Of a stretch of DNA of 64,000 nucleotides, positions 595-11,903 are shown one piece after another. The first letter of the stretch is position 1. Each line of letters begins with the position of its first letter. A program made the position numbers and the translations under genes. Location: IMG/VR virus record IMGVR_UViG_3300017917_005384, positions 1-64,000 of that record. One strand, 5' to 3'. This DNA comes from a virus. The notes below the pieces were generated by a model. That model had not been told where the DNA came from. It saw only the letters and a list, made by a program, of their open reading frames with translations, and searched no databases.

Positions 595-619
595 GGCAAA
601 ATAATATTGTTATATTTAA
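595..619 (+). promoter_or_regulatory. Early-type promoter for the AT-hook gene
   Basis: GGCAAAA at 595 and TATATTTAA at 611, 16 nt start to start. The ATG at 638 follows 18 nt after the second box, leaving a short A-rich leader without a Shine-Dalgarno sequence. Confidence 0.65.
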
Positions 620-637
620 CGAAATAAAATAAACAAT

Positions 638-1330: not shown

Positions 1331-1332
1331 AA

Positions 1333-1357
1333 GGCAAAACTTTTTACGTAAATTTAT
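1333..1357 (+). promoter_or_regulatory. Early-type promoter for small membrane protein
   Basis: GGCAAAA at 1333 and TAAATTTAT at 1349, with the same 16-nt spacing as the others. It starts three bases after the AT-hook stop codon, so the stop region and promoter nearly overlap. The target ATG is at 1373. Confidence 0.6.
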
Positions 1358-1372
1358 TTTAAATAAATAACT

Positions 1373-1543
1373 ATGAAAACAAATACAATTATTAAAGGAA
1401 CCTATGCATTCTATATGGGATTCGCATTATCTCTATTTTTTGATGCTGGTTTAACTGACTGGCGCTGGTGGGCAATTGCGATACCAAGTATGCTTGTTAT
1501 GGAGTTATTAACTTCAAAGAATGAAGAAAATGAATCAATATAA
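1373..1543 (+). CDS. Small two-helix membrane protein
   Basis: A 56-residue protein starting MKTNTIIKG. Two hydrophobic stretches (about residues 11-24 and 33-46) are separated by LTDWRWW and could form a membrane hairpin. The tail is acidic. The last 14 bases overlap the start of the next MORN gene at 1530, so the pair is probably translationally coupled. A role in the host inner membrane, for example exclusion, is possible but only inferred. Confidence 0.65.
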   Translation: MKTNTIIKGTYAFYMGFALSLFFDAGLTDWRWWAIAIPSMLVMELLTSKNEENESI

Positions 1544-1844
1544 TGAAAAAGGAAACAGGGAAGGTTATTGGGAAGGATATTATTCCGATGATCAATTAAG
1601 TTGGAAGGGCCATTATAAGGATGGAGTAAAAGAGGGTTATTGGCAAAACTATTATACCAATGGTCAATTATCATGTAAAGGTCATTATAAGGATGGCGAA
1701 TATGAAGGTTATTGGGAAATGTATTATATCAATGGTCAATTAATGTATAAAGGTCATTATAAGAATGGTAAACCAGATGGTTATTGGGAAGGGTATTATG
1801 AGAATGGTCAATTATGTTATAAATCATTTTATGCCAGAATGTAA
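1530..1844 (+). CDS. MORN-repeat protein, four-unit version
   Basis: A 104-residue protein starting MNQYNEKGN. It contains four 23-residue MORN-like units, one more than most of its neighbours, and ends FYARM. An in-frame ATG at 1521 (MKKMNQY) is less likely because the paralogs begin at MNQ. The differing unit count shows in-frame gain or loss of a 69-bp module. Confidence 0.8.
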   Translation: MNQYNEKGNREGYWEGYYSDDQLSWKGHYKDGVKEGYWQNYYTNGQLSCKGHYKDGEYEGYWEMYYINGQLMYKGHYKNGKPDGYWEGYYENGQLCYKSFYARM

Positions 1845-1847
1845 AAA

Positions 1848-1872
1848 GGCAAAATTCTTATCTTATATTTAT
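1848..1872 (+). promoter_or_regulatory. Early-type promoter, duplicated copy A
   Basis: GGCAAAA at 1848 and TATATTTAT at 1864. The 25-bp core, with the spacer TTCTTATCT, is identical at 2139, 2742 and 4329, so promoter and flanks were duplicated as a block. It drives the repeat-protein gene at 1888. Confidence 0.65.
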
Positions 1873-1887
1873 ATAAAATAAAAAAAT

Positions 1888-2139
1888 ATGACAATCGCAC
1901 AACAACTCAAGATTAAAGAATTTCCTTTCGAGATTAATGATTCGCAAGGAAAATGTATCTATTACGAAAATTCCAGTGGGAATTGGTTTAAGCAGGAATA
2001 CGACGCGCAGGGCAACCAAATCTACTATGAAAATTCAGGGGGCACGATCATCGACAATCGCGCCAAAACCGAGTTCACAATGGACGAGATCGCAGCCAAG
2101 TTTGGCATTCCAGTTTCACAACTTAAAATCAAAAAATAG
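1888..2139 (+). CDS. EYDAQGN-repeat protein, short member
   Basis: An 83-residue protein with conserved ends and a repeat centre. The N-terminus is MTIAQQLKIKEFPFEI. The centre holds one full repeat unit (YYENSSGNWFKQEYDAQGN) and a partial one. The C-terminus reads TMDEIAAKFGIPVSQLKIKK, which looks like a small helical binding motif. Three larger paralogs lie at 4372, 6301 and 7745. The tandem units resemble YD/RHS-type repeats, but no toxin domain is attached. Function unknown. Confidence 0.75.
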   Translation: MTIAQQLKIKEFPFEINDSQGKCIYYENSSGNWFKQEYDAQGNQIYYENSGGTIIDNRAKTEFTMDEIAAKFGIPVSQLKIKK

Positions 2140-2163
2140 GCAAAATTCTTATCTTATATTTAT
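2139..2163 (+). promoter_or_regulatory. Early-type promoter, duplicated copy B
   Basis: GGCAAAA starts on the last base of the preceding TAG stop codon, and TATATTTAT starts at 2155. The core is identical to the copy at 1848. The target start at 2199 has a longer A-rich leader than usual. Confidence 0.65.
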
Positions 2164-2198
2164 ATAAATAAATAGTTAAACATTAAAAACAAAACAAA

Positions 2199-2426
2199 AT
2201 GACAAAGACAATTGTACTTGAACCTTCAACTAACACACACGCACTGACTGGTGTAACTGAAGTAGCTAACATTACTAGCTCAATTCTTAAAGTGAAAACA
2301 TCAGGCCCTTCTAAAGTGTTTCATGGTGAACATCACACTATTGGAATTGAAAGTGAAAATATAATCAAATATGTCCAGCAGGAACTAAACCCAGTAACAG
2401 GTAAGCTTCAGAATGCTTGGGACTAA
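2199..2426 (+). CDS. Hypothetical protein
   Basis: A 75-residue protein starting MTKTIVLEPSTNTHALTG. It has a central HGEHHTIGIES segment and ends LNPVTGKLQNAWD. No domain is recognised. It is monocistronic, with its own promoter upstream and a strong hairpin terminator 18 bases downstream. Confidence 0.65.
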   Translation: MTKTIVLEPSTNTHALTGVTEVANITSSILKVKTSGPSKVFHGEHHTIGIESENIIKYVQQELNPVTGKLQNAWD

Positions 2427-2443
2427 TTTAGATGAAAAAAAAG

Positions 2444-2475
2444 TGGGTGCTTAAAGGAGCACCCATTATTTTTTT
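2444..2475 (+). terminator. Rho-independent terminator
   Basis: An 8-bp perfect stem, TGGGTGCT (2444) with AGCACCCA (2458), a 6-nt loop and a following T-rich run. It ends the transcript of the gene at 2199. Confidence 0.85.
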
Positions 2476-2495
2476 AATTTATAGTGTTATAATGT

Positions 2496-2738
2496 ATGAA
2501 TCAATATAATGAAAAAGGGAATAGGGAAGGTTATTGGGAAGGGTATTGGTACAACGGTCAATTACGGGGGAAAGGTCATTATAAGGATGGTAAACATGAA
2601 GGTTATTGGGAATACTATTATTCCAATGGTCAATTAATACGGAAAGGTCATTATAAGGATGGAGCACCAGATGGTTATTGGGAAGAGTATCATTTAAATG
2701 GTCAATTATGGTATAAAGAATTTTATGCAAGAATGTAA
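2496..2738 (+). CDS. MORN-repeat small protein
   Basis: An 80-residue protein, MNQYNEKGN to FYARM, with three MORN-like units. It starts only 20 bases after the upstream terminator and no 16-nt-spaced promoter is visible, so it may depend on read-through or a weak internal promoter. Closest by eye to the genes at 1530 and 3646. Confidence 0.8.
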   Translation: MNQYNEKGNREGYWEGYWYNGQLRGKGHYKDGKHEGYWEYYYSNGQLIRKGHYKDGAPDGYWEEYHLNGQLWYKEFYARM

Positions 2739-2741
2739 AAA

Positions 2742-2766
2742 GGCAAAATTCTTATCTTATATTTAT
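2742..2766 (+). promoter_or_regulatory. Early-type promoter, duplicated copy C
   Basis: GGCAAAA at 2742 and TATATTTAT at 2758. It sits immediately after the stop codon of a MORN gene, the same arrangement as at 1848 and 4329. It drives the gene at 2797. Confidence 0.65.
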
Positions 2767-2796
2767 ATAAAATAAAAACAGTAAAATTAAAACAAA

Positions 2797-3546
2797 ATGA
2801 AAATTTACATCACAACATTTAATGAAGTTTATTTTGACACTGAACAAAATTCTATGGTTGGTTGTTCCAATTCTGAATTTCTTCGTTACCTAAAAGGTAT
2901 TCACACAAATCGTGAACGATTTATTAATCGTTATGTAAATGTGTTGCTTGAAAAACTTGAAAGTTTGAAAGAACATAGTATGGAAGATTATGATTGTATT
3001 AAAAAGTTTATTGACTTTTTGGTTGATAACTACAACGATGCTGTTTCTTTTTCATTTAAAGAATCTTTTGAACTAAATGAAAAACGAGAATTTCAAGCAC
3101 TAGTGTTTTCATCAATCAATATCGGTGAAATGATGCAAGAATTGGGTGCTACTCGTTATAAAACAGATGGTATCGAAGTTAAACACCGTCGATATGATGA
3201 TGATGGAAATGTTACTAATGAAGAAATGTACCACAATGTTTATGAAGTGTGGGAAGTGAATGGTGAAAAATTGGGAATTAATGAAAATCTTTACACAGTT
3301 AAATGCTGGTGTACTTCGACCAATAAAGAACATTGGTTGTGGATTGAAGATCAATACAAAGAAGATCCACTTGAAGCTATTGCATCTACTTTCCGAGTGC
3401 ATGAAAATATCATTCCTCATATCAAATGTTTGAAGCGACATGGTGATATTCTTTTAGCTGAAATGAATGAAGATGTCACACCAGAAGGTAATATTGTTCC
3501 ATTTACTAAGGAACTATATTTCAAACTATTAGTTGCTCAAAGTTGA
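2797..3546 (+). CDS. Hypothetical protein, 249 aa
   Basis: The largest early protein without a recognised domain. The N-terminus is MKIYITTFNEVYFDTEQNS. A helical, charged middle (residues ~20-90) is followed by a KTDGIEVKHRRYDDDGNV stretch and a possible beta segment, YTVKCWCTSTNKEHWLWIE. It lacks signal peptide and membrane segments and is probably cytoplasmic. Its own promoter precedes it and a GC-rich terminator follows, so it is expressed as a single unit. Confidence 0.75.
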   Translation: MKIYITTFNEVYFDTEQNSMVGCSNSEFLRYLKGIHTNRERFINRYVNVLLEKLESLKEHSMEDYDCIKKFIDFLVDNYNDAVSFSFKESFELNEKREFQALVFSSINIGEMMQELGATRYKTDGIEVKHRRYDDDGNVTNEEMYHNVYEVWEVNGEKLGINENLYTVKCWCTSTNKEHWLWIEDQYKEDPLEAIASTFRVHENIIPHIKCLKRHGDILLAEMNEDVTPEGNIVPFTKELYFKLLVAQS

Positions 3547-3564
3547 TGTTGTGATAATAAATGT

Positions 3565-3602
3565 AAAAAGCCCCTGATCGTTTAGAAAAGGGGCTTTTTT
3601 TA
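3565..3602 (+). terminator. Rho-independent terminator
   Basis: AAAAAGCCCCT pairs with AGGGGCTTTTT around a 13-nt loop. The A-run/T-run flanks suggest function in both directions. It ends the gene at 2797. Confidence 0.85.
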
Positions 3603-3605
3603 TTT

Positions 3606-3630
3606 GTCAAAACAACTATAATATATTTAT
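3606..3630 (+). promoter_or_regulatory. Early-type promoter for a MORN operon
   Basis: GTCAAAA at 3606, preceded by TTT so that TTTG is complete, and TATATTTAT at 3622. It drives three consecutive MORN genes starting at 3646, 3900 and 4155. Confidence 0.65.
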
Positions 3631-3645
3631 TAAAATTAATAAAAA

Positions 3646-3888
3646 ATGAATCAATATAACAAAAAAGGAAATCAAGAAGGTTATTGGGAACAATATTGGT
3701 TTAATGGTCGATTACGATGTAAAGGTCATTATAAGGATGGCAAAGCTGATGGTTACTGGGAAGACTATTATTCCAATGGTCAATTAATATGGAAAGGTCA
3801 TTATAACGATGGGGCACCAGATGGATATTGGGAAGTGTATTATGAGAATGGTCAATTAGAATTGAAAGAATTTTACGCAAAAATGTAA
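3646..3888 (+). CDS. MORN-repeat small protein
   Basis: An 80-residue protein, MNQYNKKGN to FYAKM, with three repeat units. It is the first gene of a three-gene MORN operon. It differs from its paralogs mostly at the variable positions flanking NGQL, the pattern expected of diversifying surface residues on a fixed scaffold. Confidence 0.8.
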   Translation: MNQYNKKGNQEGYWEQYWFNGRLRCKGHYKDGKADGYWEDYYSNGQLIWKGHYNDGAPDGYWEVYYENGQLELKEFYAKM

Positions 3889-3899
3889 ATTAGATTTAT

Positions 3900-4142
3900 A
3901 TGAATCAACGTAATGAGAAAGAAAATAGAGAAGGCTATTGGGAAGAGTATTACAACAATGGTCAATTAGATTATAAAGGGCATTATAAGGATGGTGTGCT
4001 AGATGGTTATTGGGAAAGATATTATTACAATGGTCAATTATGGCGGAAAGGTCATTATAAGGATGGCAAACGGGAAGGTTATTGGGAATTCTTTTATGAC
4101 AATGGTCAATTATACTATAAAGAATTTTTAGCAAGAATGTAA
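3900..4142 (+). CDS. MORN-repeat small protein
   Basis: An 80-residue protein, MNQRNEKEN to FLARM, with three units. It lies 11 bases after the previous MORN gene and 12 before the next. The MNQR start groups it with the genes at 136 and 4155 rather than with the MNQY group (1530, 2496, 3646), so at least two sub-lineages are interleaved. Confidence 0.8.
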   Translation: MNQRNEKENREGYWEEYYNNGQLDYKGHYKDGVLDGYWERYYYNGQLWRKGHYKDGKREGYWEFFYDNGQLYYKEFLARM

Positions 4143-4154
4143 ACCTGAATGTAT

Positions 4155-4325
4155 ATGAATCAACGTAATGAACAGGGACAAAAACATGGCTATTGGGAAG
4201 GGTATTATTCCGATGGCCAATTAAATTGGAAAGATCATTTTAAAGATGACAAAAAAGAGGGTTATTGGGAATCATATTTTTTCGATGGTCAATTACAGTA
4301 TAAAGAATTTTATGCAAGGATATAA
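4155..4325 (+). CDS. MORN-repeat protein, two-unit version
   Basis: A 56-residue protein, MNQRNEQGQ to FYARI, with only two repeat units. The repeats are decaying (KDHFKDDKK in place of KGHYKDGK). It may be an in-frame deletion product of a three-unit gene. Confidence 0.75.
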   Translation: MNQRNEQGQKHGYWEGYYSDGQLNWKDHFKDDKKEGYWESYFFDGQLQYKEFYARI

Positions 4326-4328
4326 AAA

Positions 4329-4353
4329 GGCAAAATTCTTATCTTATATTTAT
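4329..4353 (+). promoter_or_regulatory. Early-type promoter, duplicated copy D
   Basis: GGCAAAA at 4329 and TATATTTAT at 4345. As at 1848, it links a MORN gene to an EYDAQGN-repeat gene, so the MORN-promoter-repeat unit seems to have duplicated together. Confidence 0.65.
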
Positions 4354-4371
4354 ACAAATAAAATAAAAAAT

Positions 4372-4749
4372 ATGACAATCGCACAACAACTCAAGATTAA
4401 AGAATTTCCGTTCGAGATTAGGGATTCACATGGAAACTATATCTATTACGAAAATTCCAGGGGGAATTGGTTTAAGCATGAATACGACGCACAGGGCAAC
4501 CAAATCTACTACGAAACTTCCACTGGGTATTGGCACAAGGTTGAATACGATGCCGACGGCAGAAACATCTACTTCGAAAATTCAGCGGGGCATTGGTCCA
4601 AGCGAGAATACGATGCTCAAGGTAAAGAAATCTACTACGAAAACTCACGCGGTGAGGTCATCGACAAACGACCCAAAATCGAAATTACTATGGATGAAAT
4701 TGCAGCCAAGTTTGGCATTCCCGTTGAACAACTTAAAATCAAAAAATAG
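4372..4749 (+). CDS. EYDAQGN-repeat protein, three to four units
   Basis: A 125-residue protein starting MTIAQQLKIKEFPFEI and ending MDEIAAKFGIPVEQLKIKK. The centre has tandem units of about 21 residues (IYYENSxGxWxKxEYDAQG). The frame is open to 4246, but the conserved MTIAQQ start and the promoter at 4329 fix the start at 4372. Function unknown. Confidence 0.8.
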   Translation: MTIAQQLKIKEFPFEIRDSHGNYIYYENSRGNWFKHEYDAQGNQIYYETSTGYWHKVEYDADGRNIYFENSAGHWSKREYDAQGKEIYYENSRGEVIDKRPKIEITMDEIAAKFGIPVEQLKIKK

Positions 4750-4773
4750 GCAAAACAAACAAACTATCTTTAT
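4749..4773 (+). promoter_or_regulatory. Early-type promoter for exported protein
   Basis: GGCAAAA starts on the last base of the TAG stop at 4749, and TATCTTTAT starts at 4765. The target ATG is at 4810. Confidence 0.55.
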
Positions 4774-4809
4774 ACAAATATCGACTGAAATTTTGAAAAT
4801 TTTAAAAGC

Positions 4810-5244
4810 ATGAAAAACATACTAGCAACAGCACTGCTCCTGATCGGACTACAAGCATTTGGACAGCAAATCACCCTCAAAGACGTGTTCGCCATTTATG
4901 ACTTGAGAGGCGACTCTATGGCAATTCTGAAGATAGTGAAAGATAGCGGGTTCGTTTTTGTTGGGCAGCCGTATGAGGAGAACCACGATTGCTTTATTCA
5001 CAAAAGTGCGGAAACGATGGTTGCCATGCAATGGGGAAAGAGGGTGGTTTATAACTTCAAGTCGCTTAGCCTATACCAATCATACGAAATCGGCCTAGCC
5101 CAAATGGGATACACCAATACCGGCCAATTATTAATTGAAAAAGATATGGTGTATCAGTACAAAAACGGCAATAGAGAAGCCTACTTAGTTAAGTTCAACT
5201 TGGGTGATCCTAAACAATCCTATGGGATTAGTTTGGCTGACTAG
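4810..5244 (+). CDS. Exported protein with signal peptide
   Basis: A 144-residue protein. The first ~19 residues (MKNILATALLLIGLQAFGQ) are a typical Sec signal peptide with likely cleavage after AFG or FGQ. The mature part is mixed alpha/beta and has no recognised domain. Codon use looks less AT-rich than its neighbours, which may mark a recent acquisition from a host. The product is probably periplasmic or on the cell surface during infection. Confidence 0.75.
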   Translation: MKNILATALLLIGLQAFGQQITLKDVFAIYDLRGDSMAILKIVKDSGFVFVGQPYEENHDCFIHKSAETMVAMQWGKRVVYNFKSLSLYQSYEIGLAQMGYTNTGQLLIEKDMVYQYKNGNREAYLVKFNLGDPKQSYGISLAD

Positions 5245-5282
5245 AACTATAAATTGAAAAGTATAAACCAAAAAAAAAAATA

Positions 5283-5307
5283 GGCAAAATAATTGTATTA
5301 TCTTTAT
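5283..5307 (+). promoter_or_regulatory. Early-type promoter
   Basis: GGCAAAA at 5283 and TATCTTTAT at 5299. It drives the 71-residue gene at 5324. Confidence 0.6.
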
Positions 5308-5323
5308 ACAAAGAAAATTAAAA

Positions 5324-5539
5324 ATGTTACATAAAGAAATTGAAAAAAACAACCGCAAGGTTCAAGTTTATCGTCAAAAAAGTCCGATACGAAATGGATA
5401 TGAGTATTTTTTACAAGTCCTCACAAAAGGTATGTTTGGCGATTGGGTTGTAAATGCTAATTACAAACAAAAGACTGAAATAAATTCTGAACAAGTTGCA
5501 GTAAGAATGGCTAATGAATTTTTAGAGGATACCATTTAG
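5324..5539 (+). CDS. Hypothetical protein, 71 aa
   Basis: Starts MLHKEIEKNNRKVQVYRQK and ends AVRMANEFLEDTI. Basic at the N-terminus, with a possible small beta-sheet followed by a helix. No family recognised. It is the last gene before a 260-base region of unusual composition. Confidence 0.65.
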   Translation: MLHKEIEKNNRKVQVYRQKSPIRNGYEYFLQVLTKGMFGDWVVNANYKQKTEINSEQVAVRMANEFLEDTI

Positions 5540-5800
5540 GGTTTCCGCTAACTCACCACCTCACAACCCGCACCCGGCGGAACCGGGTAGTAAAATACAA
5601 TAAATAAAATGAAATAAACACAAAATACTAAGGTCAACGAAGTATATTGGATGGTAAGTATATGCGTTTTTTGCGGGTTTTTTGTGGTTTTTAATGGGTT
5701 TTTTATGTGTGGGTGAGTGAGACGAAGGGTGTAGAACAAAAATAAAGGGTGGAAACAAGAATTTTTTGTATTGGGGGAGGATGAAGGAGGTACATATAGT
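5540..5800 (+). other. Non-coding region with hairpin and G/T-rich tract
   Basis: No convincing gene. The left part has a 6-bp hairpin, ACCCGG-CGGAA-CCGGGT (5572-5588). Nested or pseudoknot-like pairing is also possible: GGGTT at 5539 with AACCC at 5565, and TTCCGC at 5543 with GCGGAA at 5577. The right part (about 5660-5800) is G/T-rich on this strand, with many GGG runs, unlike the A/T-rich gaps elsewhere. An AAGGAGG sequence at 5784-5790 is one of the few strong ribosome-binding-like sites in the window. Confidence 0.5.
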
Positions 5801-5917
5801 ATGTGGAACGGGGGGTATATGTTGGATGTGTTTTTGTGTGATAGGGGTAGAAAAGTTACAGTGGCTACATCCTCTCTACTAAGGAAAAAAGTATATACTA
5901 GGGACTACACAAAATAG
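5801..5917 (+). CDS. Candidate small protein, 38 aa
   Basis: ATG at 5801 to TAG at 5915-5917, beginning MWNGGYMLDVFLCDRGRK. Two things support it: an AAGGAGG ribosome-binding-like site about 10 bases upstream, and an ending directly at the next GGCAAA promoter box, as the real genes around it do. The G-rich base composition and the absence of a 16-nt-spaced promoter count against it. Confidence 0.35.
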   Translation: MWNGGYMLDVFLCDRGRKVTVATSSLLRKKVYTRDYTK

Positions 5918-5941
5918 GCAAAGTTTTTTTATTATTTTTAT
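5917..5941 (+). promoter_or_regulatory. Early-type promoter for ArdA-like gene
   Basis: GGCAAAG at 5917 and TATTTTTAT at 5933. It drives the gene at 5961. Confidence 0.6.
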
Positions 5942-5960
5942 ACAAATGAAATAAAAAGTT

Positions 5961-6248
5961 ATGAATTCAAGAATGAACGAAGATGATTTTTTGCTGGAGA
6001 TGTATTCAAAAGCAACAGGTTATGAAGTACAAGACCTTGATATTAATGAAGTACAAAATGCTTTTTTTGGTACAGCATATAGTGAAGAAGAATTTGTAGA
6101 ACAACTAATGGAAGAACAAGGAGTACTAGATAAAATCCCAAACAATATTGTTATTGATTGGAAAAGAACATGGGAAGAGAATTTTAGCCACGACTATTGG
6201 ACTGCAGAAGCAGAAGATGGTACCATTTATTTCTTTCTTACAAATTAA
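5961..6248 (+). CDS. ArdA-like antirestriction candidate
   Basis: A 95-residue acidic protein. Residues ~36-95 read GTAYSEEEFVEQLMEEQG, then a helix, then HDYWTAEAEDGTIYFF. This resembles the C-terminal part of ArdA antirestriction proteins (pattern: G.Y.S.EDFAEE, a Gly-Leu-Leu-type turn, then a D-Y-x-x-x-DG-x-(V/I)-x-F end), which mimic DNA to block type I restriction enzymes. ArdA is usually ~165 residues, so this would be a single-domain version. The match is by eye; net acidity is consistent with DNA mimicry. It has its own early promoter, fitting a need immediately after injection. Confidence 0.5.
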   Translation: MNSRMNEDDFLLEMYSKATGYEVQDLDINEVQNAFFGTAYSEEEFVEQLMEEQGVLDKIPNNIVIDWKRTWEENFSHDYWTAEAEDGTIYFFLTN

Positions 6249-6254
6249 AAAATA

Positions 6255-6279
6255 GGCAAAATTTTTTTATTATTTTTAT
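6255..6279 (+). promoter_or_regulatory. Early-type promoter
   Basis: GGCAAAA at 6255 and TATTTTTAT at 6271. It drives the repeat-protein gene at 6301. Confidence 0.6.
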
Positions 6280-6300
6280 AGTAAGAAAATAAAAAAAGAT

Positions 6301-6741
6301 ATGACAATTGCACAACAACTCAAGATCAAGGAATTTCCGTTTGAGATTAGAGATTCGCAAGGAAAATGTATCTATTCAGAAGAAGCCAACGGGCTTTGGA
6401 ATAAATGGAATTACGATACTCAAGGTAACATCATTCGTTACGAAACATCAACCGGGCATTGGGAAAAGTGGGAATACAACACTAACAGAATCGAGACTCG
6501 TTACGAAAACTCCGACGGGTTTTGGGAAAAGCGGGAATACGATGCCAACGGATACATCATTCGTTACGAAAACTCTGATAGATATTGGTCAAAGTGTAAA
6601 TACGACACACAGGGCAATATAATCTACTACGAAAACTCACACGGTAGGGTCATCGACAAACGGCCCAAAACCGAAATTAGTATGGACGAAATTGCACAGA
6701 AATTTGGCATTCCAGTTTCACAACTAAAGATTAAAAAATAG
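6301..6741 (+). CDS. EYDAQGN-repeat protein, longest member
   Basis: A 146-residue protein with the family N-terminus MTIAQQLKIKEFPFEI and C-terminus MDEIAQKFGIPVSQLKIKK. It has about five central units, with IRYENSDGFWEKREYD as the best-conserved form. Units differ more from each other than from the matching unit of paralogs, so unit gain is not all recent. Function unknown. Confidence 0.8.
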   Translation: MTIAQQLKIKEFPFEIRDSQGKCIYSEEANGLWNKWNYDTQGNIIRYETSTGHWEKWEYNTNRIETRYENSDGFWEKREYDANGYIIRYENSDRYWSKCKYDTQGNIIYYENSHGRVIDKRPKTEISMDEIAQKFGIPVSQLKIKK

Positions 6742-6765
6742 GCAAAGCTTTTTTATTATTTTTAT
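6741..6765 (+). promoter_or_regulatory. Early-type promoter, upstream of tRNA region
   Basis: GGCAAAG starts at 6741, on the last base of the stop codon, and TATTTTTAT at 6757. No start codon follows closely. A second promoter at 6794 lies between it and the tRNA gene. Confidence 0.5.
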
Positions 6766-6793
6766 AGTAAGAAAATTAAAAAAAATTTGATAG

Positions 6794-6818
6794 GTCAAAA
6801 TTAAAATTGTATATTTAA
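6794..6818 (+). promoter_or_regulatory. Promoter of the tRNA/ncRNA cluster
   Basis: GTCAAAA at 6794 and TATATTTAA at 6810, 15 bases before the mature tRNA-Leu end. Use of the same promoter type for RNA genes suggests an early stable-RNA operon covering 6833 to about 7285. Confidence 0.65.
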
Positions 6819-6832
6819 TATATCAAACAAAT

Positions 6833-6918
6833 AGTCGAGTGGCGAAATTGGTAGACGCGACAGACTTAAAATCTGTTGAGCCGAAAGGCTCGTGTGGGTT
6901 CGATTCCCATCTTGACTA
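6833..6918 (+). tRNA. tRNA-Leu (anticodon UAA)
   Basis: The acceptor stem is AGTCGAG/CTTGACT, with a G-T pair. The D-loop has GG, the anticodon loop is CTTAAAA (anticodon TAA), the variable arm is long (GAGCC-GAAA-GGCTC), and the T-arm has GGGTTCGATTCCC. The long variable arm and anticodon agree on leucine. CCA is not encoded. It would read TTA, the dominant leucine codon of these genes. Confidence 0.9.
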
Positions 6919-6977
6919 CGAGTGAGACTGTTACTAATTCATAGAACTATAGAGTGATTGCGTAGAATTAGAATTTT

Positions 6978-7098
6978 AGTCAGGTAATGTGTAATGTGAA
7001 AATGGCATCACATCCCAAAGACACCACGGTCCATAACCAATTGGACGCGAGACGTTATAAGGGTTACATTGTTACAGGTTCGAGTCCTGTCCTGACTA
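6978..7098 (+). ncRNA. tRNA-like RNA, 121 nt, non-canonical core
   Basis: A perfect 7-bp acceptor-type stem, AGTCAGG (6978) with CCTGACT (7091), encloses a perfect T-arm, ACAGG-TTCGAGT-CCTGT, placed directly before the 3' strand as in tRNA. The interior is far too long for a tRNA. It contains hairpins ATGTGA/TCACAT (about 6990-7012) and GTCCA/TGGAC (about 7030-7055), and I cannot build a normal anticodon arm. It may be an intron-containing tRNA, a decayed tRNA, or a tRNA mimic. Acceptor and T-arm are nearly identical to the element at 9205. Confidence 0.55.
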
Positions 7099-7110
7099 CA
7101 TTAAAGTTCT

Positions 7111-7277
7111 TTGACCACTTGCTTGAAGATAGACAGTAAGCAGCAATGCTCCTATAGCCGATACGAGAAATATAGGGCTTACAAACTATGCCAGTAGTTG
7201 TTGTCTATTGTAAAGATACAGTGAGTTGCGCATTAAGAGTTGCGGCTGTATTCCTCTGGTAAAGGACAAGTGGTCAA
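7111..7277 (+). ncRNA. Structured RNA with three-way junction
   Basis: A perfect 11-bp closing stem pairs TTGACCACTTG (7111-7121) with CAAGTGGTCAA (7267-7277). Inside are two long hairpins. Hairpin 1 has nested helices ATAGACA/TGTCTAT (7129, 7202), GTAAGC/GCTTAC (7136, 7177) and CCTATA/TATAGG (7151, 7171). Hairpin 2 has ATACAG/CTGTAT (7216, 7246) with an inner CGCA/TGCG. TTTTTAT follows the closing stem closely and may act as terminator. There is no open reading frame. It does not match tmRNA, RNase P or the simple long hairpin of 6S RNA as I know them. It lies in the tRNA cluster. Confidence 0.7.
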
Positions 7278-7470
7278 TGTTTTTATCTTGATTACTTCAA
7301 ACCATTTCACGTTGAAGAGACGTGGGGTAGTTTTCTTTTTGTCGTGGAGAGAGAAAAATAATAAGTAGCCTACCTCTGATCCCTCCACCTATTCTATAAG
7401 GCGCCCGTCCAAATCGACAATATAAATTTAAAAAGTTTATTTTGCCGAATAAAATTTTATTTATTTTTTA
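7278..7470 (+). other. Non-coding region after the structured RNA
   Basis: No gene seen. It contains a small hairpin, CACGT-TGAAGAG-ACGTG (about 7302-7323), and a longer-range pairing, GTGGAG (7344) with CTCCAC (7383), with GCCT/AGGC outside it. This could be a second structured RNA, but I cannot define its ends. Base composition is more GC-rich than in other gaps. Confidence 0.4.
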
Positions 7471-7495
7471 GTCAAAATATGATTTGTATATTTAT
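7471..7495 (+). promoter_or_regulatory. Early-type promoter
   Basis: GTCAAAA at 7471 and TATATTTAT at 7487. It drives the gene at 7515. Confidence 0.65.
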
Positions 7496-7514
7496 ACAAA
7501 TAAAATAAAAAGTT

Positions 7515-7706
7515 ATGAATGTTTATCAAGACACTGCTGATCGACTATTGGGTATTTGTGATGATTGGACAATAAAAAACATAAAAGAACATCTGTTGTG
7601 GTTAATTGATAATCCAGAAGAAATAGCAGATGGATATAATAAATCTGTTTTTAAAGAAAGTAATGTGGATAAAATTATGAAATATGTTAAAGTTTTAAAA
7701 AAATAG
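7515..7706 (+). CDS. Hypothetical protein, 63 aa
   Basis: A helical protein starting MNVYQDTADRLLGICDDWT with basic C-terminal KVLKK. No domain recognised. Single gene between two early-type promoters. Confidence 0.65.
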   Translation: MNVYQDTADRLLGICDDWTIKNIKEHLLWLIDNPEEIADGYNKSVFKESNVDKIMKYVKVLKK

Positions 7707-7730
7707 GCAAAACATATTTCGTATATTTAT
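7706..7730 (+). promoter_or_regulatory. Early-type promoter
   Basis: GGCAAAA starts on the stop codon's last base (7706) and TATATTTAT at 7722. The start codon at 7745 is only 14 bases past the second box. Confidence 0.65.
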
Positions 7731-7744
7731 ACAAATAAAAAGTT

Positions 7745-8125
7745 ATGACAATAGCACAACAATTAGGTATTAAAAAATTTCCATTTGAAATTAAGAATTC
7801 TCGTAATCAACGTATCTATTTGGAAGATGGAAAAGGGTTTTGGTTAAGACGAGAATTTGACGTTCAGGGTAACGAAATTTATTATGAAGACTCAAATGAA
7901 TGTTGGGCAAAGATAGAACACGATGCTCGAGGTAATGAAATCCGTTATGAAGACTCAAACAAGTATTGGGCCAAGTGGGAATACGATGCTCAAGACAATC
8001 GAATTTACTTTGAAGACTCATTGGGTATTATTGAGGATAAACGACCACCCAAAACCGAAATTAGTATGGATGAAATTGCAGCCAAGTTTGGTATTCCAGT
8101 TTCACAATTGAAAATCAAAAAATAG
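7745..8125 (+). CDS. EYDAQGN-repeat protein, diverged member
   Basis: A 126-residue protein starting MTIAQQLGIKKFPFEIKNS and ending MDEIAAKFGIPVSQLKIKK. The repeats carry EDS in place of ENS (YYEDSNECWAKIEHDARGN). It shows the most AT-rich codon use of the four paralogs and is probably the oldest copy in this genome. Function unknown. Confidence 0.8.
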   Translation: MTIAQQLGIKKFPFEIKNSRNQRIYLEDGKGFWLRREFDVQGNEIYYEDSNECWAKIEHDARGNEIRYEDSNKYWAKWEYDAQDNRIYFEDSLGIIEDKRPPKTEISMDEIAAKFGIPVSQLKIKK

Positions 8126-8149
8126 TCAAAACTAATTACTTATATTTAA
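8125..8149 (+). promoter_or_regulatory. Early-type promoter
   Basis: GTCAAAA at 8125 and TATATTTAA at 8141. It drives the gene at 8168. Confidence 0.65.
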
Positions 8150-8167
8150 TTAATAAAATTAGAACAT

Positions 8168-8365
8168 ATGCCTAACATGTCTTATTGCCGATTCCAAAAC
8201 ACGTATCAGGATTTGATGGATTGCTATGAAAATTTGAATGATAGTGATTTGAGTCATAATGAACGTCGTTATCGAGAAAAACTAGTAGAGTTGTGTCAAG
8301 ATATTTTGGATGAATATGATCCTCAGGAAGAAGAAGACGAAGAAAATGATGATTTTGAGGAGTAA
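8168..8365 (+). CDS. Small acidic conserved phage protein
   Basis: A 65-residue protein starting MPNMSYCRFQNTYQDLMDCY, with a central LSHNERRYREKLVELC helix and a very acidic tail. Short MSYCRFxNTxxDLxDC proteins recur in Bacteroidota phages and genomes (from memory). Function unknown. Confidence 0.7.
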   Translation: MPNMSYCRFQNTYQDLMDCYENLNDSDLSHNERRYREKLVELCQDILDEYDPQEEEDEENDDFEE

Positions 8366-8371
8366 AAAATA

Positions 8372-8396
8372 GGCAAAACACGTTTCGTATATTTAA
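8372..8396 (+). promoter_or_regulatory. Early-type promoter for AT-hook gene
   Basis: GGCAAAA at 8372 and TATATTTAA at 8388. The start at 8426 has a longer AAAAC-rich leader. Confidence 0.65.
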
Positions 8397-8425
8397 TTAT
8401 TAATAAAAACAAAAAACAAAAGGTT

Positions 8426-8698
8426 ATGAACAACGTAGAAACAACCACAACAGAAGTAACAAACGTTAAGCGCGGTCGTCCTGTACTTGAAGGTTCAGCT
8501 CGCCAAGCAAAACTTGCAGCCCGAGCAGCCAAAATGGCTAATGGTGAAACCATTTCTCGAGGCCGTCCTGTGAATCCTAATTCACCTCGTCAGCTCCGTC
8601 TTGCAGCTCGTGCTGCACGAGCAGAAAGTGGTATTGAAGTTAAGGTTGGACGTCCTAAGGGTACAGGAAAGAAAGTAACTGAGGAAGTTACGGCTTGA
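8426..8698 (+). CDS. AT-hook protein with Arg/Ala helices
   Basis: A 90-residue basic protein with three GRP hooks (KRGRPVLEG, SRGRPVNPN, KVGRPKGTG). Between them are alanine/arginine-rich helices (RQAKLAARAAKMA and RQLRLAARAARAE). The hook-helix-hook layout is repeated, as in HMGA- or histone-tail-like DNA compaction proteins. It could coat the AT-rich phage or host genome early in infection (inference). Terminator directly downstream. Confidence 0.75.
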   Translation: MNNVETTTTEVTNVKRGRPVLEGSARQAKLAARAAKMANGETISRGRPVNPNSPRQLRLAARAARAESGIEVKVGRPKGTGKKVTEEVTA

Positions 8699-8702
8699 GC
8701 TT

Positions 8703-8742
8703 AAAAAATCCTGTTTTTCGTTTGGAAGGCAGGATTTTTTTA
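8703..8742 (+). terminator. Rho-independent terminator merged with a promoter region
   Basis: AAAAAATCCTG (8703) pairs with CAGGATTTTTT (8730). The following TATTATTTTTATTC may double as the -7 region for the gene at 8771, although the usual upstream GxCAAA box is missing there. Confidence 0.8.
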
Positions 8743-8770
8743 TTATTTTTATTCTATAAGATTAAAAAAT

Positions 8771-8980
8771 ATGAAAACGTTATTTGAACGGCTTAAACCT
8801 GAATTCAGAGAACAACTTGAATCACAACTTGAAAGATACCCATCATCAATTGGGAAAATAATTGATGAGTTGAAAGAAAATTATTTTTATGTTGATATTA
8901 AGTATGGAACTGTTTTAGAAACAGGGTTGTTTATTTCAGGAACGTTTGAAGATATGTTTGAAGATGTTAAATATAAATAA
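8771..8980 (+). CDS. Hypothetical protein, 69 aa
   Basis: Starts MKTLFERLKPEFREQLESQL and ends TFEDMFEDVKYK. An N-terminal amphipathic helix precedes a short beta-rich part. No family recognised. Forms a two-gene unit with the gene at 8987, six bases downstream. Confidence 0.65.
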   Translation: MKTLFERLKPEFREQLESQLERYPSSIGKIIDELKENYFYVDIKYGTVLETGLFISGTFEDMFEDVKYK

Positions 8981-8986
8981 ATAGTT

Positions 8987-9190
8987 ATGGTATCATATTG
9001 GGAAGCAATCGCAGATTTTGTTACAACAACATTGTTTGGTGAACGTATGCCCGGTGAATCACTTAAACCAGTCAGGTTTAAAACCACTCACCCAACAGAA
9101 CCACTCAGTTACAACGAATGGATGCAGATGTTTCGAGTAAGTTCGTTACATGGTGTTAATCAAAGAATATTTTTTGAGTCAAGATCTTAG
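8987..9190 (+). CDS. Hypothetical protein, 67 aa
   Basis: Starts MVSYWEAIADFVTTTLFGE and contains SYNEWMQMFRVSS. No family recognised. Its stop lies 14 bases before a tRNA-like element. Confidence 0.6.
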   Translation: MVSYWEAIADFVTTTLFGERMPGESLKPVRFKTTHPTEPLSYNEWMQMFRVSSLHGVNQRIFFESRS

Positions 9191-9204
9191 TATTATATTT
9201 AAAT

Positions 9205-9301
9205 AGTCAGGTGGCGCAATGGTAGCGGACGGAAATGGGAGTAACCGAAAGGTCAGTACCAATCACTTGCCGGAGTACAGGTTCGAATCCTGTCCTGACT
9301 A
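9205..9301 (+). ncRNA. tRNA-like RNA, 97 nt
   Basis: A perfect acceptor stem, AGTCAGG (9205) with CCTGACT (9294), and a perfect T-arm, ACAGG-TTCGAAT-CCTGT. A tRNA-like D-arm is present (TGGCGCAATGGTAGCGG). The anticodon region is too long (about 45 nt) and has small internal pairings. It may be a tRNA with an insertion in the anticodon arm. The sequence CTTGCC near its end resembles a glycine-type anticodon loop, but no clean stem forms. 3' CCA is not encoded. Confidence 0.6.
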
Positions 9302-9358
9302 CAAAAACAATAACCGTCCCAGTCGTTGTTTTGATTCATACTTTTAATTTTATATTAC

Positions 9359-9388
9359 GCCCGATGTTTCTACATTGGGCTTTTTTTT
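9359..9388 (+). terminator. Rho-independent terminator
   Basis: GCCCGATG-TTTCTA-CATTGGGC (one G-T pair) followed by eight T. It ends the transcript through the tRNA-like element. Confidence 0.85.
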
Positions 9389-9392
9389 ATTT

Positions 9393-9417
9393 GTCAAAAT
9401 AATTTTATTATATTTAA
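9393..9417 (+). promoter_or_regulatory. Early-type promoter
   Basis: TTTGTCAAAA (G at 9393) and TATATTTAA at 9409. It starts right after the upstream terminator and drives the mini-gene at 9437. Confidence 0.65.
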
Positions 9418-9436
9418 TTAAATAAAATAAAAGGTT

Positions 9437-9514
9437 ATGTTTGAATTACAAGTTCCTGTTCAAATTATGGGTGACGTAGTTGTTGATCCTATTCAAATTA
9501 TTTACCTCAACTAG
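9437..9514 (+). CDS. Very small protein, 25 aa
   Basis: ATG at 9437 to TAG at 9512-9514, starting MFELQVPVQIMGDVVVDP. Placement 19 bases after a well-formed promoter, and its stop merging with the next promoter, exactly mimic the neighbouring genes. I therefore call it real despite its size. Function unknown. Confidence 0.55.
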   Translation: MFELQVPVQIMGDVVVDPIQIIYLN

Positions 9515-9538
9515 TCAAAATTTTTTTATTATATTTAA
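9514..9538 (+). promoter_or_regulatory. Early-type promoter
   Basis: GTCAAAA starts on the last base of the TAG stop (9514) and TATATTTAA at 9530. It drives the gene at 9558. Confidence 0.65.
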
Positions 9539-9557
9539 TTAATAAAATTAAAAGGCT

Positions 9558-9764
9558 ATGTTATCTTTTAAGATGGAAAAAAAAGTAACAATGTTACTTA
9601 AAGAATTAGAACGAGCCAAAACTGATAGGGATTTTATTCAGGTGGAAAATAAAATTTGTTTTTTACCTAAGAAGGTGATTAAAGAATTTTATATACGGGC
9701 TGAAAAACAGGGGTTGATTATTAATCATGGAGATGAAATAGAATACATTTATTGGTTAGAATAG
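9558..9764 (+). CDS. Hypothetical protein, 68 aa
   Basis: Starts MLSFKMEKKVTMLLKELERA. A helical, basic N-terminal half is followed by a short hydrophobic end (EIEYIYWLE). No family recognised. Confidence 0.6.
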   Translation: MLSFKMEKKVTMLLKELERAKTDRDFIQVENKICFLPKKVIKEFYIRAEKQGLIINHGDEIEYIYWLE

Positions 9765-9777
9765 TTTTTTTTAACTA

Positions 9778-9802
9778 GTCAAAATTTTTTTATTATTTTT
9801 AG
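9778..9802 (+). promoter_or_regulatory. Early-type promoter
   Basis: GTCAAAA at 9778 and TATTTTTAG at 9794. Drives the gene at 9821. Confidence 0.6.
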
Positions 9803-9820
9803 TTAATAAAATTAAAAGTT

Positions 9821-10066
9821 ATGAAACAAGTAGCAACAAAAGAATTTGGTTCTGGTAAGTATAAGCAAATTTTGAGTCTTCATATCGATGAAGAAGATAA
9901 TTCAGGTTACATTGAGCAAGTAACTGAAGGGTATGATAATATATTTGATATTGGTTTGTGGTTTGAAGGAAAACGTGTAGTTGGTTACGATGGTGTGTTT
10001 GTTTTATCTAAAGAAGCAATTCAGCTACTCCAAGAAAATGGTTTTATCACAGATGATGTGGAATAA
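9821..10066 (+). CDS. Hypothetical protein, 81 aa
   Basis: Starts MKQVATKEFGSGKYKQIL and ends AIQLLQENGFITDDVE. Predicted beta-rich with a C-terminal helix; acidic overall. No family recognised. Confidence 0.6.
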   Translation: MKQVATKEFGSGKYKQILSLHIDEEDNSGYIEQVTEGYDNIFDIGLWFEGKRVVGYDGVFVLSKEAIQLLQENGFITDDVE

Positions 10067-10074
10067 CATTTTTA

Positions 10075-10099
10075 GTCAAAATAATTTTATTATATTTAA
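10075..10099 (+). promoter_or_regulatory. Early-type promoter
   Basis: GTCAAAA at 10075 and TATATTTAA at 10091. Drives the gene at 10118. Confidence 0.65.
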
Positions 10100-10117
10100 T
10101 TAATAAAATTAAAAGTT

Positions 10118-10312
10118 ATGAAAAGTAAAAGTGTTTATCTTATTTTCTTCCACCACAAGGATGTATTCAATAATGCTTGTATTGAATGTACAAGAGAAGA
10201 ATTTATTGATGAGTGTATTAAAAATGAGTTAGTCAGTAGTAAAGAAGAACTTGATAAGGTAAAGTGGGTTATTTTTGAAGATGGATATGAGTGGTTCCCG
10301 GTTATATATTAG
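10118..10312 (+). CDS. Hypothetical protein, 64 aa
   Basis: Starts MKSKSVYLIFFHHKDVFNN. Has two cysteines in ACIEC and an FEDGYEW motif near the end. No family recognised. Confidence 0.6.
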   Translation: MKSKSVYLIFFHHKDVFNNACIECTREEFIDECIKNELVSSKEELDKVKWVIFEDGYEWFPVIY

Positions 10313-10331
10313 CAATAGTTTTTTTTAGTTT

Positions 10332-10356
10332 GTCAAAATTTTTTTATTATTTTTAA
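10332..10356 (+). promoter_or_regulatory. Early-type promoter
   Basis: TTTGTCAAAA (G at 10332) and TATTTTTAA at 10348. Drives the gene at 10371. Confidence 0.6.
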
Positions 10357-10370
10357 TTAAATAATAAAAT

Positions 10371-10604
10371 ATGAAATACCAGATTAAAAGTATTTTTGAA
10401 CAAATTAGTTCAACAGTTTTTAGTATGACTGATGTTAATGAAGCTAAAGCATTCATTATTAATTTTGTTAATGATAAAAACATTAATGAAACTGATAAAA
10501 TTCAGATACTAAATAATATCCAACCTATTAAAAGTATTACTAAGTTACAAACATACCTTTGTAACTCATTATTAAAATATGAAGGTATGAGTGTAAATAA
10601 ATAG
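10371..10604 (+). CDS. Hypothetical helical protein, 77 aa
   Basis: Starts MKYQIKSIFEQISSTVFSM. Lysine/asparagine-rich, with several helices. No family recognised. Confidence 0.6.
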   Translation: MKYQIKSIFEQISSTVFSMTDVNEAKAFIINFVNDKNINETDKIQILNNIQPIKSITKLQTYLCNSLLKYEGMSVNK

Positions 10605-10628
10605 GCAAAATTTTTTTATTATATTTAA
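10604..10628 (+). promoter_or_regulatory. Early-type promoter
   Basis: GGCAAAA starts on the last base of the stop (10604) and TATATTTAA at 10620. Drives the gene at 10655. Confidence 0.65.
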
Positions 10629-10654
10629 TTATTAAATAAATAAAATTAAAAGTT

Positions 10655-10906
10655 ATGACAGTAAAAGAATTAATGGACACATTAAGTACATTTGATCCTG
10701 AAACAGAAGTAGTAGGTATGTGTATTGATCCTACAGATTACATCTATAAACTTCCTATTGAATCAATTGAATTAGGTGATCCATTTGATAGTAATGGTAT
10801 ACATGGTGTTACAGGTGATGAAATAGATGATTGGGATGATGTACATGATAAAGATGGTGAATATGTTGGTGAAAAAGTATTGATTATAAATTTAGGTAAT
10901 GTTTAA
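10655..10906 (+). CDS. Small acidic MTVKEL-type protein
   Basis: An 83-residue protein starting MTVKELMDTLSTFDPETEV. Short phage proteins with a TVKELIxxLxxFDPDxEV start are common and uncharacterised. The rest is strongly acidic (DEIDDWDDVHD). A role by charge mimicry is conceivable but unsupported. Confidence 0.65.
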   Translation: MTVKELMDTLSTFDPETEVVGMCIDPTDYIYKLPIESIELGDPFDSNGIHGVTGDEIDDWDDVHDKDGEYVGEKVLIINLGNV

Positions 10907-10917
10907 TTAAGATAAAG

Positions 10918-10948
10918 AATACCCTAGAAATAGGGTATTTTTTTTTTA
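10918..10948 (+). terminator. Rho-independent terminator
   Basis: AATACCCTA-GAAA-TAGGGTATT, a perfect 9-bp stem with a GNRA-type tetraloop, then a T-run. Confidence 0.9.
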
Positions 10949-10964
10949 TTAATGAATAATATTT

Positions 10965-10989
10965 GTCAAAATTTTTTTATTATATTTAA
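10965..10989 (+). promoter_or_regulatory. Early-type promoter
   Basis: TTTGTCAAAA (G at 10965) and TATATTTAA at 10981. The preceding TTATTAATGAATAATA is repeated upstream of the promoters at 11310 and 11655, so the upstream flank was duplicated too. Confidence 0.65.
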
Positions 10990-11015
10990 TTATTAAATAA
11001 ATAAAATTAAAAATT

Positions 11016-11249
11016 ATGGAAAAGAAATTAGTATTAGAAATTTTAGAAAGGAATGGATATGATAAAGAATATTTTGAGGAAATGGATGATAATGTAATTG
11101 AAGGAGGTACTGAAGAATGGATGGATGTGTTAAGTGATATAATTGGAAAAAATGCATATGATCAAGATAATTGGACTGAAGAGGATTATATGAAAGTTAG
11201 AAAATTTATTAATGTTATGGAAAATGATTTAGGATTAGAATTATTGTAA
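11016..11249 (+). CDS. Acidic protein with domain shared with 47968
   Basis: A 77-residue protein starting MEKKLVLEILERNGYDKE. Residues ~32-66 (EEWMDVLSDIIGKNAYDQDN and on) are nearly identical to the C-terminal half of the gene at 47968. At DNA level, 75 bases are the same (11112-11186 against 48145-48219). Here the domain has no RMQQLAGINE leader and is driven by an early promoter. Function unknown. Confidence 0.7.
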   Translation: MEKKLVLEILERNGYDKEYFEEMDDNVIEGGTEEWMDVLSDIIGKNAYDQDNWTEEDYMKVRKFINVMENDLGLELL

Positions 11250-11264
11250 ATTTTTAAATAAAAG

Positions 11265-11292
11265 ATACCTCAGAAATGAGGTATTTTTTTTT
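11265..11292 (+). terminator. Rho-independent terminator
   Basis: ATACCTCA-GAAA-TGAGGTAT followed by eight T. Same loop and flanks as the terminator at 10918 with a compensated stem, so the two look like evolved copies. Confidence 0.9.
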
Positions 11293-11309
11293 ATTAATGA
11301 ATAATATTT

Positions 11310-11334
11310 GTCAAAATTTTTTTATTATATTTAA
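11310..11334 (+). promoter_or_regulatory. Early-type promoter
   Basis: TTTGTCAAAA (G at 11310) and TATATTTAA at 11326. Drives the gene at 11353. Confidence 0.65.
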
Positions 11335-11352
11335 TTAATAAGATTAAAAAAT

Positions 11353-11616
11353 ATGATTAGTGTTAAAGTTTTAATAAATGAAATTGAAAAATTTATTAGT
11401 GAAAATGAGAATGAATTTGAATTTATTGTTGATTTTAAAAATATAGAAGATAATTGGGAAATTAATTTTGAAAAAAAATGTATTAATATTTTAGAATGTT
11501 GTAATATATTTGTGAGAGAAAATGATGATAATGAGTTAGAGAATTGGTTTAAAAAAGAAAATTTAATACATAAAAAGATTAAAATTAATAATTGTATTTT
11601 ATATATAATGATGTAA
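11353..11616 (+). CDS. Hypothetical protein, 87 aa
   Basis: Starts MISVKVLINEIEKFISENE. Very rich in N, K, E and I. Contains CINILECCNIF. No family recognised; extremely AT-rich codons. Confidence 0.6.
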   Translation: MISVKVLINEIEKFISENENEFEFIVDFKNIEDNWEINFEKKCINILECCNIFVRENDDNELENWFKKENLIHKKIKINNCILYIMM

Positions 11617-11654
11617 ATAAAATATATAAGGGTTATTATTAATGAATAATATTT

Positions 11655-11679
11655 GTCAAAATTTTTTTATTATATTTAT
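11655..11679 (+). promoter_or_regulatory. Early-type promoter
   Basis: TTTGTCAAAA (G at 11655) and TATATTTAT at 11671. Drives the lipoprotein-like gene at 11707. Confidence 0.65.
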
Positions 11680-11706
11680 ATAAATAAAAAATAAAAAATT
11701 AAAAGT

Positions 11707-11859
11707 ATGAAAAATAAAATGACTCCAGCTAATATTATTTTGATTGTTATTGTAATGATTGGATTGTTAAATGGACTCACTAGTTGTAAGACATCTGGTT
11801 ATGGATGTCGTGGTAAAGAATCTTGGAATGGTATGGTAAAAAGAATTAATAGACAATAA
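11707..11859 (+). CDS. Small lipoprotein candidate, 50 aa
   Basis: MKNKMTPANIILIVIVMIG gives a hydrophobic segment, followed by the lipobox LTSC at residues 24-27. The mature part (CKTSGYGCRGKESWNGMVK) is short and basic. A signal peptide with a lipobox points to a membrane-anchored lipoprotein. Phage lipoproteins of this kind often act in superinfection exclusion; that role is inferred. GYGCRGK-ending small proteins recur in Bacteroidota phages, from memory. Confidence 0.65.
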   Translation: MKNKMTPANIILIVIVMIGLLNGLTSCKTSGYGCRGKESWNGMVKRINRQ

Positions 11860-11878
11860 AAAAAAATGAATAATATTT

Positions 11879-11903
11879 GTCAAAATTTTTTTATTATATT
11901 TAA
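11879..11903 (+). promoter_or_regulatory. Early-type promoter
   Basis: TTTGTCAAAA (G at 11879) and TATATTTAA at 11895. Last of the dense promoter series. Drives the gene at 11922. Confidence 0.65.

What the first reader, a model, noticed from the sequence alone, without database searches (positions are those of the whole stretch)
7111..7277. Compact three-way-junction RNA in the tRNA cluster
A perfect 11-bp closing stem encloses two long hairpins with several perfect helices (listed in the feature), and a T-run follows. It has no reading frame and is preceded by the tRNA operon promoter. The architecture is unlike phage ncRNAs I know. It could sequester a host RNA-binding protein, imitate tRNA, or regulate early genes.
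Basis: partly seen in the sequence, partly recalled or inferred. Interest (0 to 1): 0.75.

Follow-up and report, generated by a model that had tools for sequence, protein, structure and literature searches.

The report
New structured phage RNA beside tRNAs
An uncultivated virus of bacteria carries a small folded RNA next to a tRNA gene; a distantly related virus carries a version whose letters differ but whose helices are preserved by matching changes, so the fold is real and under selection, although what it does is not yet known.

Summary
Window 7111-7277 (+) has a perfect 11-bp closing stem, the only perfect inverted repeat of >=11 bp with >=5 G/C in the window (0.05 expected), and no reading frame. 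It ends an early non-coding operon: promoter 6796-6817, tRNA-Leu, a 122-nt tRNA-like RNA, this RNA, terminator 7304-7328. Rfam has no match. A covariance model built from this one sequence found one homolog in a distantly related phage (L229:5014-5258, minus; E 1.7e-6). Of 31 pairs in four helices, 22 are identical, 8 changed on both sides with pairing kept, none changed on one side, 1 (outermost) is broken. The structure is therefore real and conserved: closing stem P1 plus an inner three-way junction (P2/P3/P4); the 3' domain differs between the phages. In both phages it sits beside a tRNA-like RNA of a hypervariable family with constant AGTCAGG...CCTGACTAC ends (>119 IMG/VR contigs), downstream of it in one phage and upstream in the other. 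That argues for a stand-alone trans-acting RNA rather than a cis signal. Best guess: an RNA effector or decoy against a host factor (tRNA metabolism or defence). That mechanism is inferred, not shown.

The parts
6796..6817 (+). early promoter-like motif CAAAA-N9-TATATTTA heading the non-coding operon
   Evidence: 19 copies in the window, all +, 0.53 expected by shuffling; promoter function inferred
6833..6919 (+). tRNA-Leu (UAA), first RNA of the operon
   Evidence: ARAGORN, Rfam RF00005 58.6 bits
6978..7099 (+). 122-nt tRNA-like RNA with AGTCAGG/CCTGACT acceptor and a T-arm but no usable anticodon arm
   Evidence: two homologs, L164 and L225, with 4 pairs changed on both sides; missed by ARAGORN
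7111..7277 (+). the structured RNA of the finding
   Evidence: fold, homolog in L229, covariation
7111..7121 (+). P1 5' strand, pairs with 7267-7277
   Evidence: 11 pairs: 3 changed on both sides in L229, only the outermost broken
7267..7277 (+). P1 3' strand
7128..7135 (+). P2 5' strand, pairs with 7202-7209
   Evidence: 8 pairs, 1 changed on both sides, none broken
7202..7209 (+). P2 3' strand
7136..7141 (+). P3 5' strand, pairs with 7177-7182
   Evidence: 6 pairs, 3 changed on both sides, none broken
7177..7182 (+). P3 3' strand
7184..7199 (+). P4 hairpin AACUAU/GUAGUU
   Evidence: 6 pairs, 1 changed on both sides, none broken
7216..7266 (+). variable 3' domain (hairpins 7216-7251 and 7252-7266)
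   Evidence: predicted fold only; no counterpart in L229
7304..7338 (+). terminator-like hairpin and T-rich tail ending the operon
   Evidence: 0.3 such sites expected in the region
7473..7494 (+). next copy of the promoter motif, for the following gene

Best explanation
It is a discrete, early-expressed, structured non-coding RNA of about 170 nt, cut out of a tRNA-operon transcript. P1 seals the molecule. A conserved three-way junction (P2/P3/P4) with conserved CUUGAA, CAAU and GUAAAG segments is the constant part; a second, 3' domain is exchangeable. It most likely acts in trans, as an RNA effector or decoy that engages a host factor (a tRNA or RNA metabolism enzyme, or an RNA-targeting defence protein), as part of a fast-changing RNA island that also holds tRNAs and tRNA mimics. 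Shown: structure, conservation, absence of coding, operon layout. Inferred: expression, release by tRNA-maturation nucleases, trans action. Guess: the target.
For: A single-sequence covariance model finds a homolog at E 1.7e-6. Of 31 pairs, 22 are identical, 8 changed on both sides, 0 on one side, 1 broken. G-U pairs kept in P2 and P4 favour the + strand RNA. Non-coding operon with promoter and terminator. In both phages the RNA lies beside a tRNA-like RNA but in opposite order, so it is not tied to one neighbour as a cis signal would be. The locus is early and accessory: absent from G001, whose terminase is 91% identical. Phage tRNA regions are known to counter tRNA-targeting defences (PMC11555353).
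Against: Only two members. No transcript data. No partner or target identified. No defence link tested. The T-run after P1 in both phages leaves a termination or processing role open.
Confidence: 0.4

Rival explanations
1. Cis-acting element: the folded segment directs 3' processing, stability or termination of the tRNA-operon transcript and has no function after cleavage.
For: It sits last in the window operon and a T-run follows P1 in both phages.
Against: In L229 the RNA precedes the tRNA-like RNA by a few bases, so termination there would silence the neighbour; a separate terminator-like hairpin exists in the window; the conserved inner junction is more than a terminator needs.
Confidence: 0.2
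2. Self-cleaving ribozyme that trims the tRNA-like RNA, as theta ribozymes do.
For: It lies 11 nt downstream of a tRNA-like 3' end; theta ribozymes occupy that place (PMC10879173).
Against: No ribozyme family of Rfam matches, even at E 10; theta sites lie within 5 nt of the tRNA end; in L229 the RNA is upstream of the tRNA-like RNA; I found no HDV-like nested pseudoknot by inspection.
Confidence: 0.08
3. Stable RNA with a structural or translational role in the infected cell (for example binding ribosomes or other RNA), not aimed at defence, as may be the case for GOLLD and ROOL.
For: Same genomic niche as GOLLD and ROOL (PMC12286853).
Against: Much smaller, with an exchangeable 3' domain; nothing tested.
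Confidence: 0.28
4. Not a functional RNA: a chance fold or decaying sequence.
For: The folding z-score alone is modest (-2.5; -1.4 for the homolog), and the locus does not stand out in a plain stability scan.
Against: Unselected divergence would break pairs or change one side; instead 8 pairs changed on both sides, none on one side, and only the outermost broke.
Confidence: 0.04

Closest known systems
GOLLD and ROOL RNAs (phage and prophage ncRNAs near tRNA islands)
   Same: Structured phage RNA without reading frame beside tRNAs; function unknown (PMC12286853).
   Different: About 170-245 nt against many GOLLD members over 800 nt; different architecture; no Rfam match.
Phage T4 RNAs C and D (stable RNAs of the T4 tRNA cluster; recalled from memory)
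   Same: Small, non-tRNA, stable RNA in a phage tRNA operon, function unknown.
   Different: No sequence comparison with T4 was made beyond the BLAST of GenBank phages, which gave no T4 match.
Theta ribozymes (HDV-like, next to phage tRNAs)
   Same: Structured element just downstream of a phage tRNA 3' end.
   Different: Spacing, order and fold differ; no model match.
Counter-defence tRNAs of phages such as T5 (PMC11555353)
   Same: RNA product of a variable phage tRNA region; possibly a shared purpose.
   Different: Those are functional tRNAs; this RNA is not tRNA-like and no defence link was tested.

Membership tests
GOLLD / ROOL | match to the family covariance models | tested here: not met
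   cmscan of Rfam 15 at gathering thresholds and up to E 10
GOLLD / ROOL | location in phage genomes near tRNAs | tested here: met
   tRNA-Leu at 6833-6919
GOLLD / ROOL | multimeric RNA cage | not testable with these tools
   needs cryo-EM or native gels
tRNA / tmRNA | acceptor and T-arm, tRNA fold or tag reading frame | tested here: not met
   ARAGORN and Rfam find neither at 7111-7277
theta / HDV-like ribozyme | cleavage site within 5 nt of a tRNA 3' end | tested here: not met
   P1 begins 11 nt after the tRNA-like end; in L229 the order is reversed (PMC10879173)
theta / HDV-like ribozyme | HDV-like nested pseudoknot | tested here: inconclusive
   no Rfam match, but divergent theta ribozymes may be missed; pseudoknots were only looked for by eye
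theta / HDV-like ribozyme | self-cleavage | not testable with these tools
   needs in-vitro assay
new family (window + L229) | shared helices P1-P4 kept by compensatory changes | tested here: met
   8 of 31 pairs changed on both sides, 0 on one side, 1 broken

The most novel reading that the evidence does not exclude
These phages carry an arsenal of small RNAs built on constant scaffolds (the AGTCAGG...CCTGACTAC tRNA-like frame and this P1-P4 junction), each with an exchangeable, fast-evolving part, used in an arms race against RNA-targeting host defences or host RNA-binding proteins: RNA counterparts of variable anti-defence proteins.
Probability: 0.2. Interest if true: 0.85.

Novelty: new variant of a known kind. 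Interest (0 to 1): 0.55.

Why it matters
It adds a new RNA family, with covariation support, to the small set of phage ncRNAs near tRNA islands whose purpose is an open question (GOLLD, ROOL, T4 RNAs C and D). At about 170 nt it is small enough for direct tests: in-vitro folding, pull-down, expression in trans. It also leads to a much larger set of hypervariable tRNA-like RNAs in uncultivated phages.

Tried and rejected
DNA-level relatives of the RNA: none in GenBank phages (best hits near E 0.2 or worse, mostly inside unrelated genes), and exact patterns gave none in IMG/VR or GTDB genomes. The G007 blastn hits are chance pieces in a repetitive coding-looking region. Neighbour proteins 5961-6248 and 7515-7706 have no relatives in IMG/VR, so synteny could not be used there. 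Model hits with E of about 0.02-5 in L183, L175, L284, L116 and others were judged chance. The genome search with the model missed the true homolog in G100, so its empty results are weak evidence of absence. Antisense to phage genes: nothing of 12 nt or more in the held parts. Theta/HDV ribozyme, GOLLD/ROOL and tRNA/tmRNA membership: rejected as in the membership table. MAFFT misaligns P3 by a base, so pairs were counted from explicit coordinates.

Full report
What was checked. The window is the first 64 kb of a 155,189-base IMG/VR virus record with baseplate and terminase genes. Thirty perfect inverted repeats of 11 bp or more spanning 100-250 nt exist in this A+T-rich window, but only this one has five or more G/C; resampled sequence gives 0.05. 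The folding z-score, -2.5, is suggestive and not conclusive, and a plain scan of 170-nt windows does not make the locus stand out. The case therefore rests on comparison.

Context. The motif CAAAA-N9-TATATTTA occurs 19 times in the window, always on the + strand and only between 597 and 11902, against 0.53 expected. I read it as the phage's early promoter (inference; it resembles Bacteroidota promoters as I recall them). One copy, 6796-6817, heads tRNA-Leu 6833-6919; the next is at 7473. Between them lie the tRNA-Leu, a 122-nt tRNA-like RNA (6978-7099), the RNA of the finding and a terminator-like hairpin at 7304-7328. This is a purely non-coding operon. The phage has a second RNA cluster at about 148 kb with three tRNAs and a tmRNA-like sequence.

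Finding a homolog. Relatives found through the terminase and the records searched held no detectable copy, including G001, whose terminase is 91% identical. The tRNA-like neighbour gave the lead: its exact 25-nt end, CAGGTTCGARTCCTGTCCTGACTAC, occurs in more than 119 IMG/VR contigs. A covariance model built from the window RNA alone (R1), run over those loci, gave one hit: L229 (IMGVR_UViG_3300046011_005921), 31.5 bits, E 1.7e-6 in 733 kb. Reading outward, the homolog spans L229:5014-5258 (minus) and is closed by a perfect 12-bp stem, AAATCACTTGAC/GTCAAGTGATTT, although the model had matched only positions 14-107. The two phages are distant: a few early genes are shared, for example 59% identity over 266 aa to window 2797-3546, and that gene lies shortly downstream of the RNA and its tRNA-like neighbour in the other contig.

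Structure test. Over P1, P2, P3 and P4 (31 pairs), 22 pairs are identical in the two phages, 8 have changed on both sides and still pair, none changed on one side, and only the outermost pair is broken. The registers of P2, P3 and P4 are fixed by direct adjacency in both sequences, and that of P1 by the shared CACTTG followed, after one inserted base in L229, by CTTGAAGAT. P2 and P4 each contain a G-U or U-G pair kept in both phages, which favours the + strand as the RNA strand. Domain 1 is therefore a conserved three-way junction inside P1. The 3' domain (7216-7266) is not conserved: L229 has an unrelated segment of about 120 nt there.

What it is and how it may work. Shown: a conserved structured non-coding RNA. 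Not shown: transcription, ends, partner. In the window the RNA follows its tRNA-like neighbour by 11 nt; in L229 it precedes a tRNA-like RNA by a few bases. Association without fixed order fits a separate gene product carried in the same RNA island better than a cis signal for the neighbour. I infer release by tRNA-maturation nucleases and action in trans. A decoy or effector aimed at a host RNA-handling or defence factor is the guess I would test first, because such regions turn over fast and phage tRNA regions are known to serve counter-defence (PMC11555353). I put the stand-alone effector/decoy reading at about 0.4, and the conserved RNA structure itself above 0.9.

Known families. Rfam has no match at gathering thresholds or up to E 10, and none for the L229 locus at gathering thresholds. 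By location it resembles GOLLD and ROOL (phage RNAs near tRNA islands; PMC12286853) but is several-fold smaller than many of them and of another architecture. Theta ribozymes cleave within 5 nt of tRNA 3' ends (PMC10879173); spacing, order and models do not fit. It is a new family of an already known, poorly understood kind.

Caveats. Two members only. The genome search missed the known homolog with the model, so absence elsewhere is uncertain. GenBank phages hold no recognisable copy at DNA level. The host is unknown.

A larger lead. The neighbours deserve their own study: 101 distinct tRNA-like RNAs under 200 nt from 75 sources, median 101 nt (60-192), with the searched 3' end and, not selected for, a conserved 5' part (TGGCGGAA in 47, TGG[CT]G in 79). 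ARAGORN accepts only 27. Their cores fall into 88 clusters among 98, and two contigs carry at least eight copies each within one fetched region.

Noticed in passing
window 6978-7099 and 9205-9302; loci L163-L242, L287, L291: A large family of tRNA-like RNAs with constant ends (AGTCAGG, TGGCGGAA...GGTAGACGC, CAGGTTCGAATCCTGTCCTGACTAC) and hypervariable cores of very different length, up to nine per phage, mostly without a usable anticodon arm: 101 distinct sequences, 88 core clusters, 27 accepted by ARAGORN; no match for a composite of the ends in GenBank phages.
   Followed up: partly
window 6978-7099; L164:9713-9834; L225:739-860 (-): The tRNA-like RNA next to the finding has two close homologs in other phages with four pairs changed on both sides; the RNA of the finding is not beside those copies.
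   Followed up: partly
L105:1348-1505 and L145:589-747: A second long tRNA-like RNA of 158-159 nt, shared by two phages, with conserved internal GGGTTGACCACA and T-arm plus acceptor.
   Followed up: no
window 597-11902: Nineteen copies of an early promoter-like motif CAAAA-N9-TATATTTA, all on the + strand, spacer exactly 9.
   Followed up: partly
L106 about 2290-2600 (G000 about 149.3-149.6 kb); L104:1936-2298; L105:1919-2285: Phage-borne tmRNA next to a tRNA cluster, tag ADYAVAA or ANEYALAA; ARAGORN calls it in the two relatives but not in the window phage's fetched stretch, where the tag-coding sequence is also present.
   Followed up: no
L104:972-1079; L136 about 7736-7810; L229 about 5260-5700 (-): Other stem-closed, branched non-coding segments between or beside tRNAs in related phages, suggesting whole arrays of structured RNAs.
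   Followed up: no
L136:7636-7711; L161:755-827 (-): tRNA-like genes whose predicted anticodon loop gives a four-base anticodon (gtga, tgta).
   Followed up: no
L136 about 7616-7632; L225 about 862-880 (-); L222; L322: A hairpin GCTYGGAAAGACRAGC directly precedes tRNA-like genes in 8 of 13 hits (hits include overlapping loci).
   Followed up: partly
window 6301-6741 and 7745-8125: Two similar small early proteins with repeated RYENS/NEIRYE-type motifs flank the RNA operon; no Pfam match; relatives of the first in 13 loci of other phages.
   Followed up: no
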